DNA of 64,000 bases from Melioribacteraceae bacterium (GTDB taxonomy: Bacteria; Bacteroidota; Ignavibacteria; Ignavibacteriales; Melioribacteraceae). Below, one piece after another: positions 7,641-8,762 of this stretch. The notes beneath the pieces were generated by a model. The model saw only the letters and a program-made list of their open reading frames with translations, did not search any database and was not told the DNA's origin. The first letter of the stretch is position 1; every line of letters begins with the position of its first letter. The DNA lies in contig BQMY01000075.1 of NCBI GenBank assembly GCA_022181065.1, positions 1-64,000 on the forward strand, given 5' to 3'. A program made the position numbers and the translations under genes.

Positions 7641-7870
7641 TGGACACACGTACAAAACCAATGCATCTTTGTGTCAATTCTCGTCTAATTCCCAATAGTT
7701 TATTGGTACAGTGAAAAAACTTACTGGATGCCTGCCTTCGCAGGCATGACACAATGTCTGGGGATGAGGTCAGAAGATTTGATTACAAATCAGCTGCTCG
7801 ACGTTTAAACGAAAAAAGCCCGACTCACAAAGAATCAGGCTTTTATTCGAGCTGGTGAACGGACCACGAA
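7641..7870. repeat. Long direct repeat, copy 1
   Basis: About 230 bp starting TGGACACACGTACAAAACCA matches 8155 onward (copy 2, starting TGGGCACACGTATAAAACCA) with scattered substitutions and small indels. It contains a palindromic repeat, CTGGATGCCTGCCTTCGCAG (7724-7750), a tRNA-Thr anticodon-arm remnant (7781-7799) and the first terminator copy of the tRNA-derived array. Copy 2 shows that the array was partly duplicated as a larger block. Confidence 0.8.
7724..7750. repeat. Palindromic dispersed repeat CTGGATnCCTGCC..GGCAnTGAC
   Basis: CTGGATGCCTGCCTTCGCAG followed by GCATGAC forms a GCCTGC/GCAGGC hairpin. Related copies are at 8236-8262, 53853-53879, 54204-54230 and a centre-altered one at 54608-54653. 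This belongs to a widespread class of REP-like palindromes of unknown role. Confidence 0.7.
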
Positions 7871-8040
7871 AACGTGGCAGGCTCGAACCCTCCCGATTCT
7901 ATCGGGATGATTACAAATCAGCTGCTCGACGTTTAACGAAAAAAGCCCGACTCACAAAGAATCAGGCTTTATTTTGAGCTGGTGAACGGACCACGAAAAC
8001 GTGACAGGCTCGAACCTCGGGCTGTCTAAAAAGGTAAGCA

Positions 8041-8154
8041 GTCACTTGCAAGAACATCTCCGTCATTGTCCCCCAGAAAAATCGAGAGGCATTCAGTTTT
8101 TGTTTTTCGTTTTTTACTGAATCTTTACAATCATAGAATAAAGATCATAGTAGG
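8041..8154. other. Unique spacer inside the tRNA-derived array
   Basis: About 110 bp of non-repeated AT-rich sequence separates the left pair of array units from the second copy of the long direct repeat. No gene, hairpin or promoter was recognised. Confidence 0.5.
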
Positions 8155-8384
8155 TGGGCACACGTATAAAACCAATGCACCTTTATTTCAATTCTCGTCT
8201 AATTCCCAATAGTATTGGTACAGTGAAAAAACTTACTGGATGCCTGCCTTCGCAGGCATGACACAATGTCTGGGGATGAGGTCAGAAGATTTGATTACAA
8301 ATCAGCTGCTCGATGTTTAAACGAAAAAAGCCCGACTCACAAAGAATCAGGCTTTTACTTGAGCTGGTGAACGGACTCGAACCT
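8155..8384. repeat. Long direct repeat, copy 2
   Basis: Second copy of the ~230-bp block at 7641-7870, beginning TGGGCACACGTATAAAACCA. It carries its own palindromic element (8236-8262), an anticodon-arm remnant (8293-8311), a terminator (8323-8357) and an acceptor remnant (8360 onward). It differs from copy 1 by lacking the 18-bp CCACG/CGTGG hairpin in the T-arm remnant. Confidence 0.8.
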
Positions 8385-8650
8385 CCCGATTCTATCGGGA
8401 TGATTACAGATCAGCTGCTCGTGCTTAAACGAAAAAAGCCTGACTCACAAAGAATCAGGCTTTTACTTGAGCTGGTGAACGGACTCGAACCCTCCCGATT
8501 CTATCGGGATGATTACAAATCAGCTGCTCGATGTTTAAACGAAAAAAGCCCGACTCACAAAGAATCAGGCTTTTAATTGAGCTGGTGAACGGACTCGAAC
8601 CCTCCCGATTCTATCGGGATGATTACAAATCAGCTGCTCGATGTTTAAAC

Positions 8651-8685
8651 GAAAAAAGCCTGACTCACAAAGAATCAGGCTTTTA
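8651..8685 (-). terminator. Terminator of tRNA-Thr (last of six copies)
   Basis: On the minus strand, AAAAGCCTGATTC, a short loop and GAGTCAGGCTTTTTTC form a strong stem with a T tract, starting a few bases after the tRNA 3' end. The same terminator recurs at 8541, 8431, 8323, 7938 and 7811. The copies at 8541, 8323, 7938 and 7811 carry one C/T change (GAGTCGGGC), which leaves a G-U pair in the stem. Confidence 0.85.
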
Positions 8686-8689
8686 CTTG

Positions 8690-8762
8690 AGCTGGTGAAC
8701 GGACTCGAACCGCCGACCGGCTGATTACAAATCAGCTGCTCTACCAACTGAGCTACACCAGC
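8690..8762 (-). tRNA. tRNA-Thr (anticodon UGU)
   Basis: The minus strand folds into a complete cloverleaf of 73 nt. Acceptor GCTGGTG pairs with CACCAGC, followed by discriminator T. The D arm is GCTC/GAGC with AGTTGGTA in the loop. The anticodon arm is GCTGA-TTTGTAA-TCAGC with anticodon TGT. The variable loop is CGGTC. The T arm is GGCGG-TTCGAGT-CCGTT, closed by two G-U pairs at its acceptor end. CCA is not encoded. The G-U pairs may mean the gene itself has drifted slightly, but all invariant positions (T8, GG in the D loop, TTCGA) are present. Confidence 0.93.

What the first reader, a model, noticed from the sequence alone, without database searches (positions are those of the whole stretch)
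7781..8762. tRNA-Thr 3' half plus terminator copied into a ~110-bp tandem array
Downstream of an intact tRNA-Thr(UGU), the 3' half of the same tRNA (D-arm 3' strand, anticodon arm, T arm, acceptor 3' strand) together with its terminator recurs. There are six anticodon-arm copies, five acceptor copies and six terminators, four of the terminators at 108-110 bp spacing. Each remnant lacks the 5' acceptor strand. If they arose by slippage, they should decay freely; instead the anticodon and T-arm blocks and the terminator are nearly invariant. Possible explanations: recent expansion, repeated integration at a tRNA 3' end leaving att-like footprints, or selection for a terminator/3'-processing array.
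Basis: seen in the sequence. Interest (0 to 1): 0.78.

Follow-up and report, generated by a model that had tools for sequence, protein, structure and literature searches.

The report
tRNA-remnant array from GIY-YIG element family
Behind one tRNA gene this bacterium carries a row of broken copies of the tRNA's back half, and comparison with hundreds of related genomes shows this is a worn-down, gene-less example of an apparently undescribed family of tiny (about 300-base) elements, each made of a small DNA-cutting enzyme gene plus a tRNA fragment disabled by a short palindrome, that sit at particular tRNA genes across the Bacteroidota.

Summary
Observation confirmed. The array lies 3' of an intact tRNA-Thr(UGU) on the MINUS strand (tRNA 8689-8762, array 8690->7780), with six anticodon-arm copies, five acceptor copies and six terminators. 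The same arrangement occurs at six other tRNAs of this genome and across the phylum, normally as tandem 270-450 bp units of [tRNA fragment + palindrome - terminator - 80-100 aa GIY-YIG nuclease ORF]. Of 165 distinct GIY-YIG loci examined, 95 lie within 1.2 kb of an intact tRNA (94 codirectional). The remnant matches the neighbouring tRNA in 76 of 79. GIY-YIG clades track tRNA isotype (25 label changes against about 60 shuffled). The palindrome replaces the same nucleotides in each isotype class (Asn 36|47 in 18 loci, Lys 25|43, Asp 51|60). Same-genus genomes show empty, ORF-bearing and ORF-less tandem states at tRNA-Lys. I read the window as an ORF-less derivative of such an element: homing-endonuclease-like, inserting at a tRNA gene and regenerating it, so it can insert again. 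Membership rests on architecture; no GIY-YIG relic is detectable in the window. Mobility and cleavage are inferred. No description found in the open literature; phage SegB is the nearest analogue.

The parts
8689..8762 (-). intact tRNA-Thr(UGU), the parent gene at the head of the array
   Evidence: ARAGORN, Rfam RF00005 70.4 bits
8654..8684 (-). terminator of the intact tRNA gene
8579..8639 (-). unit 1 tRNA remnant: nt 22-41, palindrome 8603-8619, nt ~52-74
8544..8574 (-). unit 1 terminator
8469..8529 (-). unit 2 tRNA remnant with palindrome 8493-8509
8434..8464 (-). unit 2 terminator
8361..8420 (-). unit 3 tRNA remnant with palindrome 8384-8400
8326..8356 (-). unit 3 terminator
8292..8311 (-). 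unit 4 anticodon-arm fragment
8019..8291 (-). unit 4 spacer with REP-like palindrome 8240-8262; no detectable ORF (only a weak 'VHWFYTC' resemblance to GIY-YIG starts)
7976..8018 (-). unit 4 T-arm/acceptor fragment, split by a hairpin (CACGTTTTCGTG)
7942..7970 (-). unit 4 terminator
7849..7927 (-). unit 5 tRNA remnant with palindrome 7891-7907 and a second hairpin in the T arm
7814..7844 (-). unit 5 terminator
7780..7799 (-). unit 6 anticodon-arm fragment
7624..7779 (-). start of the unit 6 spacer, 93% identical to the unit 4 spacer, REP-like palindrome 7728-7750

Best explanation
The array is an ORF-less, partly decayed tandem of a tRNA-specific GIY-YIG element. The full element, seen at other tRNAs of this genome and relatives, is about 270-450 bp: terminator, an 80-100 aa GIY-YIG nuclease ORF, then a fragment of the neighbouring tRNA gene in which a fixed stretch is replaced by a TCCCGA...TCGGGA-type palindrome. 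Shown: architecture, recurrence, codirectionality, isotype matching, fixed scar position per isotype, purifying selection on the ORF, presence/absence within genera, and ORF-less tandem derivatives. Inferred: the nuclease cuts the tRNA gene; repair from an element-bearing copy inserts the unit so that a functional tRNA is regenerated and the old half is pushed away as a remnant; because the target is regenerated, further rounds or unequal recombination build tandem arrays; the palindrome at the break site keeps remnants from being cut, folded or processed as tRNA. In the window the ORF is gone and only remnant + palindrome + terminator units remain. The link of the window to the family is by architecture, not by a surviving ORF relic.
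For: Remnant arrays at seven tRNAs of this genome (Thr, Asp, Val, Lys, Asn, Ser, fMet), four with a GIY-YIG ORF inside the array. In three complete genomes 14 of 26 GIY-YIG arrays lie within 1 kb of a tRNA, all codirectional, expected 2.3%, P=1e-16; UvrC-type GIY-YIG 0 of 6. Of 165 distinct loci, 95 are near an intact tRNA (94 same strand), 13 more have remnants only, and remnant isotype agrees in 76 of 79. Tree: 94 proteins, 18 isotypes, 25 changes against 54-63 in 200 shuffles; without the sequence-scanned loci 25 against 49-58. Scar positions fixed: Asn 36|47 in 18 loci with 22 different palindromes, Asn second class 57|61, Lys 25|43 (6 loci), Asp 50-51|59-60 (6), Pro and Val 28|46. Palindromes 1.40/kb beside tRNA-linked ORFs against 0.01/kb beyond 600 bp. 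Same-genus states at tRNA-Lys: empty G053, ORF-bearing G056, two ORF-less 95-bp tandem units G055; at tRNA-Asp: G044 with, G051 without. Phylum-wide: 171 of 395 genomes, 94 of 170 genera; 21 of 23 sampled loci at a tRNA, all codirectional. dN/dS median 0.10 over the 11 pairs with estimable dS. Window palindromes enriched.
Against: The window array has no GIY-YIG ORF and none is detectable by tblastn. No GIY-YIG near tRNA-Thr was seen among the 165 loci, and the exact Thr scar occurs only here among 391 class genomes, so a Thr-specific nuclease is not demonstrated. The intact tRNA still carries the presumed target, which a classical homing endonuclease would keep cutting. Isotype fidelity could reflect vertical descent at the same locus rather than targeting. 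The ORFs are little more than the catalytic domain. No cleavage or movement was observed.
Confidence: 0.62

Rival explanations
1. Host-locus amplification without a mobile element: slippage or unequal crossover duplicated the tRNA 3' half plus terminator, copies are homogenised by gene conversion, and REP-like palindromes landed in the non-functional copies.
For: 95-96% unit identity and alternating A/G terminator variants suggest recent multi-unit duplication. No ORF in the window. Palindromes of this general type are widespread.
Against: The palindrome sits at the same tRNA nucleotides for one isotype across many genera with different stem sequences. Arrays at other tRNAs carry a conserved nuclease ORF under purifying selection. 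Slippage does not predict isotype-specific nuclease clades.
Confidence: 0.2
2. Footprints of repeated phage/ICE integration by tyrosine integrases at the tRNA-Thr 3' end.
For: tRNA-Thr is an integration site in this family: G016 has an 11.4 kb island with two Phage_integrase proteins and a 45-nt att copy; G002, G007 and G013 have similar single remnants.
Against: Real att copies start at nt 32, are unbroken to the 3' end, single, and have no palindrome. Window units start at nt 22, are broken at 41|52 by a palindrome, are tandem at 110 bp, and no integrase lies between or beside them (neighbouring ORFs end at 7423 and begin at 8894).
Confidence: 0.05
3. A functional array: stacked terminators or tRNA-like decoy RNAs kept for gene regulation, tRNA 3'-end processing, or as decoys for tRNA-targeting nucleases or integrases.
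For: Six near-identical terminators follow the tRNA. Remnants with matched hairpins persist in many genomes.
Against: Arrays vary from absent to several copies between species of one genus. They track a nuclease gene rather than host regulation. Upstream arrays exist too, where they cannot terminate tRNA transcripts.
Confidence: 0.08
4. Domesticated GIY-YIG system that amplifies or repairs the tRNA gene itself (dose control or defence against tRNA-cutting systems), as phage SegB does.
For: SegB, a GIY-YIG homing endonuclease, drives tandem amplification of tRNA plus segB in phage T6 (PMC13096335).
Against: In the bacterial arrays it is not the functional tRNA that is amplified but disabled fragments, so tRNA dose does not rise.
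Confidence: 0.05

Closest known systems
SegB of T-even phages (free-standing GIY-YIG homing endonuclease; PMC13096335)
   Same: Small GIY-YIG nuclease next to tRNA genes; creates tandem repeats of a tRNA + nuclease unit
   Different: Phage genome; the whole functional tRNA is amplified; no palindromic scar and no isotype-specific family described in the parts of that paper I read. No tblastn match of the Asp-type protein in 50,697 phage records
tRNA-gene integrative elements with tyrosine integrase (prophages, ICEs)
   Same: Partial copies of the target tRNA gene flank the insertion; functional tRNA preserved
   Different: Kilobase elements with integrase, one unbroken att copy, no nuclease ORF of 80-100 aa, no tandem micro-units, no palindrome
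UPF0213/YhbQ-type GIY-YIG proteins and SLX1
   Same: Nearest solved relatives of the tRNA-linked ORFs (1zg2 E=4e-16, 7cq2 SLX1 E=1e-8)
   Different: UPF0213-like ORFs in these genomes are not at tRNAs and lack palindromes; SLX1 is a larger structure-specific nuclease subunit
E. coli tyrT rtT repeats (from memory)
   Same: Tandem repeats downstream of a tRNA containing a piece of its 3' end
   Different: No Rfam match in the window other than tRNA; no nuclease; a different tRNA and phylum
REP/RAYT-type palindromic repeats (from memory)
   Same: Short palindromes dispersed with an associated nuclease gene
   Different: Here the nuclease is GIY-YIG and the palindrome sits at a fixed tRNA position

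Membership tests
tRNA-associated GIY-YIG element (defined here) | partial copy of the adjacent tRNA, same isotype, tandem or flanking | tested here: met
   window units are tRNA-Thr fragments beside tRNA-Thr
tRNA-associated GIY-YIG element (defined here) | TCCnG...CnGGA palindrome replacing an internal stretch of the tRNA fragment | tested here: met
   TCCCGATAGAATCGGGA at 41|52 in units 1, 2, 3, 5
tRNA-associated GIY-YIG element (defined here) | GIY-YIG ORF in the unit | tested here: not met
   no hit in the window array; therefore read as an ORF-less derivative, as seen at tRNA-Lys in G055, not as a full member
GIY-YIG superfamily (the ORFs of full elements) | PF01541 domain above gathering score with catalytic Y, G, R, H, E | tested here: met
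   58-64 bits against cutoff 22.6; invariant Y5 Y16 G18 R26 H30 E62
free-standing homing endonuclease element (full elements) | presence/absence at allelic sites in close relatives | tested here: met
   tRNA-Lys G053/G055/G056, tRNA-Asp G044/G051
free-standing homing endonuclease element (full elements) | cuts the empty cognate target DNA | not testable with these tools
   needs biochemistry
free-standing homing endonuclease element (full elements) | insertion destroys the recognition site | tested here: inconclusive
   the remnant copy is scarred, but an intact tRNA copy remains
integrase-type element at tRNA | integrase gene in or next to the repeated unit | tested here: not met
   no ORF of 150 aa or more between 7423 and 8894
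integrase-type element at tRNA | unbroken att identity block to the tRNA 3' end | tested here: not met
   interrupted by the palindrome, in contrast to att copies in G002, G007, G013, G016
RtT RNA | match to the Rfam model | tested here: not met
   only RF00005 reaches gathering score in the window

The most novel reading that the evidence does not exclude
A phylum-wide class of minimal mobile elements (about 300 bp, one 80-100 aa GIY-YIG domain, no other protein) in which each subfamily is dedicated to one tRNA isotype, inserts into the tRNA gene, regenerates it, marks the displaced half with a palindrome at the cut site, and therefore builds tandem arrays; ORF-less arrays such as the window's would be non-autonomous derivatives. 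These would be among the smallest self-mobilising genes known.
Probability: 0.45. Interest if true: 0.88.

Novelty: new variant of a known kind. Interest (0 to 1): 0.76.

Why it matters
It would turn a puzzling repeat into a testable mobile-element system: which nuclease cuts which tRNA gene, why a palindrome marks the break, and how a gene of about 90 codons can persist across a phylum at essential genes without harming them. It would also explain many breaks in draft assemblies at tRNA genes, provide a set of tiny GIY-YIG domains with apparent isotype specificity, and give a chromosomal counterpart to the recently reported SegB-driven tRNA amplification in phages.

Tried and rejected
GIY-YIG relic in the window spacers: not found by tblastn; only a 7-codon resemblance (VHWFYTC) and a shared REP-like palindrome, so not claimed. 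att-footprint reading: rejected after reading real att copies at tRNA-Thr in four relatives. Same unit elsewhere in the genome: none apart from a terminator-like stretch near tRNA-Cys. The exact Thr scar in 391 genomes of the class: only here; the other three genomes' hits are imperfect palindromes that I did not inspect. Phage and plasmid carriers of the Asp-type protein: none. A 13-sequence alignment was too diverse for the genome-contig scan, so a two-sequence Asn-type alignment was used. Literature searches found no description of tRNA-linked GIY-YIG elements in bacteria; the library is open-access only. Assembly artefact considered: window units differ at several positions, and arrays also occur in single-contig genomes, although identical copies could still be miscounted.

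Full report
OBSERVATION. The window holds one tRNA, tRNA-Thr(UGU), at 8689-8762 on the minus strand. Reading that strand downstream, six copies of the fragment GAGCAGCTGATTTGTAATCA (D-arm 3' strand and anticodon arm), five T-arm/acceptor fragments and six terminators follow. TRF scores 110-bp and 127-bp tandem arrays at 95-96% identity. The counts in the finding are right. What was missed is that in units 1, 2, 3 and 5 the variable loop and 5' T stem are replaced by a perfect 17-bp palindrome, TCCCGATAGAATCGGGA, so the junction is nt 41 | about nt 52. The pattern TCCCG...CGGGA occurs 6 times in the window against 0.35 expected, four of them in this array. Units 4 and 6 contain a longer spacer (93% identical over 173 bp) with a REP-like palindrome. 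The array lies between an ORF ending at 7423 and one starting at 8894.

NOT A SINGLE ODDITY. In the same genome, remnants of other tRNAs lie beside or away from their intact genes: Asp (C84, about 135-bp units), Val (C120, at a contig end), Lys (C78), Asn (C141/C97), Ser(TGA) (C97, 203-bp units) and fMet (C76). Each remnant is broken by a palindrome. Four of these arrays contain a small GIY-YIG nuclease ORF between the remnants. At C97 two tandem ORFs of 377-bp period are flanked by tRNA-Asn 3' remnants.

STATISTICS. In three single-contig relatives, 26 GIY-YIG arrays or singletons were compared with 129 tRNAs: 14 arrays lie within 1 kb of a tRNA, all on the tRNA's strand; random placement gives 2.3% (P=1e-16); UvrC-type GIY-YIG proteins 0 of 6. 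One array has five copies at exact 315-bp spacing beside tRNA-Asp; arrays occur upstream of tRNAs as well, and those carry 5' tRNA fragments. Adding 20 more genomes and a GTDB scan gave 165 distinct loci: 95 with an intact tRNA within 1.2 kb (94 codirectional, 75 downstream and 19 upstream), 13 with remnants only, 57 with neither. The remnant isotype equals that of the adjacent tRNA in 76 of 79. The 57 tRNA-free loci belong mostly to other branches of the tree.

ISOTYPE-SPECIFIC CLADES. On a tree of 94 tRNA-linked proteins with 18 isotype labels, 25 label changes are needed against 54-63 in 200 shuffles; leaving out loci fetched by sequence similarity, 25 against 49-58. The tree rests on 84 columns and many forks are weak, but the Asn, Asp, Lys, Cys, fMet and Leu groups are visible. 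A GTDB scan with an Asn-type protein returned 32 loci in Ignavibacteria, Melioribacteraceae, Chlorobiaceae and other Bacteroidota MAGs, and one WOR-3 MAG without a tRNA; most have tRNA-Asn immediately beside the ORF.

FIXED SCARS. The palindrome replaces the same tRNA nucleotides within an isotype: Asn 36|47 in 18 loci with 22 different palindromes, a second Asn class 57|61, Lys 25|43, Asp 50-51|59-60, Pro and Val 28|46, Cys 38|57, fMet 57-58|61-62. Outer bases (TCCCG/CGGGA) are nearly constant while positions 2, 6 and 7 of the stem change on both sides. Such palindromes are about 140-fold denser beside tRNA-linked ORFs than beyond 600 bp. This argues against random REP insertion and for a scar that travels with the element or is made at one fixed place.

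SAME-GENUS STATES. At tRNA-Lys in one genus, G053 has only tRNA and terminator; G056 has a GIY-YIG ORF (interrupted by a stop) plus a scarred remnant; G055 has two ORF-less 95-bp units of spacer + scarred remnant before the terminator. The last is the same architecture as the window. At tRNA-Asp, G044 has the element and G051, same genus, does not. The ORFs are under purifying selection (median dN/dS 0.10 in the 11 pairs with estimable dS) and keep the GIY-YIG catalytic residues. Nearest solved relatives are UPF0213 proteins and the structure-specific nuclease SLX1, then I-TevI.

SPREAD. With an Asp-type query, 171 of 395 Bacteroidota genomes (94 of 170 genera) match at E<=1e-8; 21 of 23 newly sampled loci are at a tRNA, all codirectional, many with the same type of palindrome. 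No phage or plasmid record matches that query.

MODEL. Element = [tRNA 3' part - terminator - ORF - tRNA fragment - palindrome]. Insertion at the tRNA break point leaves a complete tRNA upstream and a scarred remnant downstream, matching the observed order; upstream arrays are the mirror case. Because a functional tRNA, and thus the target, is regenerated, insertion can repeat, or tandem copies can grow by recombination after a cut, as shown for the GIY-YIG homing endonuclease SegB in phage T6 (PMC13096335). The palindrome would stop the remnant being cut or folding as a tRNA. Cutting, movement and the role of the palindrome are inferred. An alternative for isotype fidelity is long vertical descent at the same locus; I did not reconcile host and nuclease trees.

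THE WINDOW. It has the remnant, palindrome, terminator and tandem features but no ORF and no detectable ORF relic. I therefore read it as an ORF-less derivative and not as a full member. No Thr-linked GIY-YIG was seen among the 165 loci; three Thr arrays (window, G026, G048) are all ORF-less, and the exact Thr scar is unique to this genome among 391 of its class. True integrase footprints at tRNA-Thr look different.

LIMITS. Draft genomes and MAGs dominate; identical copies may be miscounted. The literature library is open-access only. The rtT and RAYT comparisons are from memory.

Noticed in passing
L092 (own genome C86:45033-46092), L091, L173, L178, L183, L185, L190, L215, L174, L268: A second GIY-YIG subfamily (NKxxKTLYIGxTNNLxRRxYEHK), not at tRNAs, is flanked by REP-like palindromes GTCATnCC...GGnATGAC: 1.53/kb within 300 bp against 0.12/kb beyond 600 bp for all non-tRNA loci; in C86 three copies stand in tandem at about 420 bp. 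Possibly a REP-associated GIY-YIG nuclease.
   Followed up: partly
L285 (G016:C16:588500-603500): An 11.4 kb prophage-like island at tRNA-Thr with two tyrosine recombinases and a tape-measure-like protein; att copy runs from tRNA nt 32 to the 3' end.
   Followed up: partly
L078 (G048:C1, tRNA-Thr): About eleven 110-bp ORF-less repeats behind tRNA-Thr whose T loop is split by two short palindromes (TTCCGGAGGAA, TCCCTTTGGGA), a scar different from the window's.
   Followed up: partly
window 53857-53879 and 54208-54230: Two further copies of a REP-like palindrome (GTCATTCCTGCGCAGGCAGGAAT), 351 bp apart.
   Followed up: no
L094/L075 (own tRNA-Lys locus): The GIY-YIG reading frame runs on through the scarred tRNA remnant and terminator, so the predicted protein has a tRNA-encoded tail (..GSLVRAQVHS..); gene callers may annotate such tails as protein.
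   Followed up: no
L313 (G051:C1:69200-79000): Between tRNA-Asp and the next conserved gene G051 has about 7 kb (sensor kinase, response regulator, outer-membrane-like proteins, a prolipoprotein-diacylglyceryl-transferase-like protein) where its congener G044 has the GIY-YIG array.
   Followed up: no
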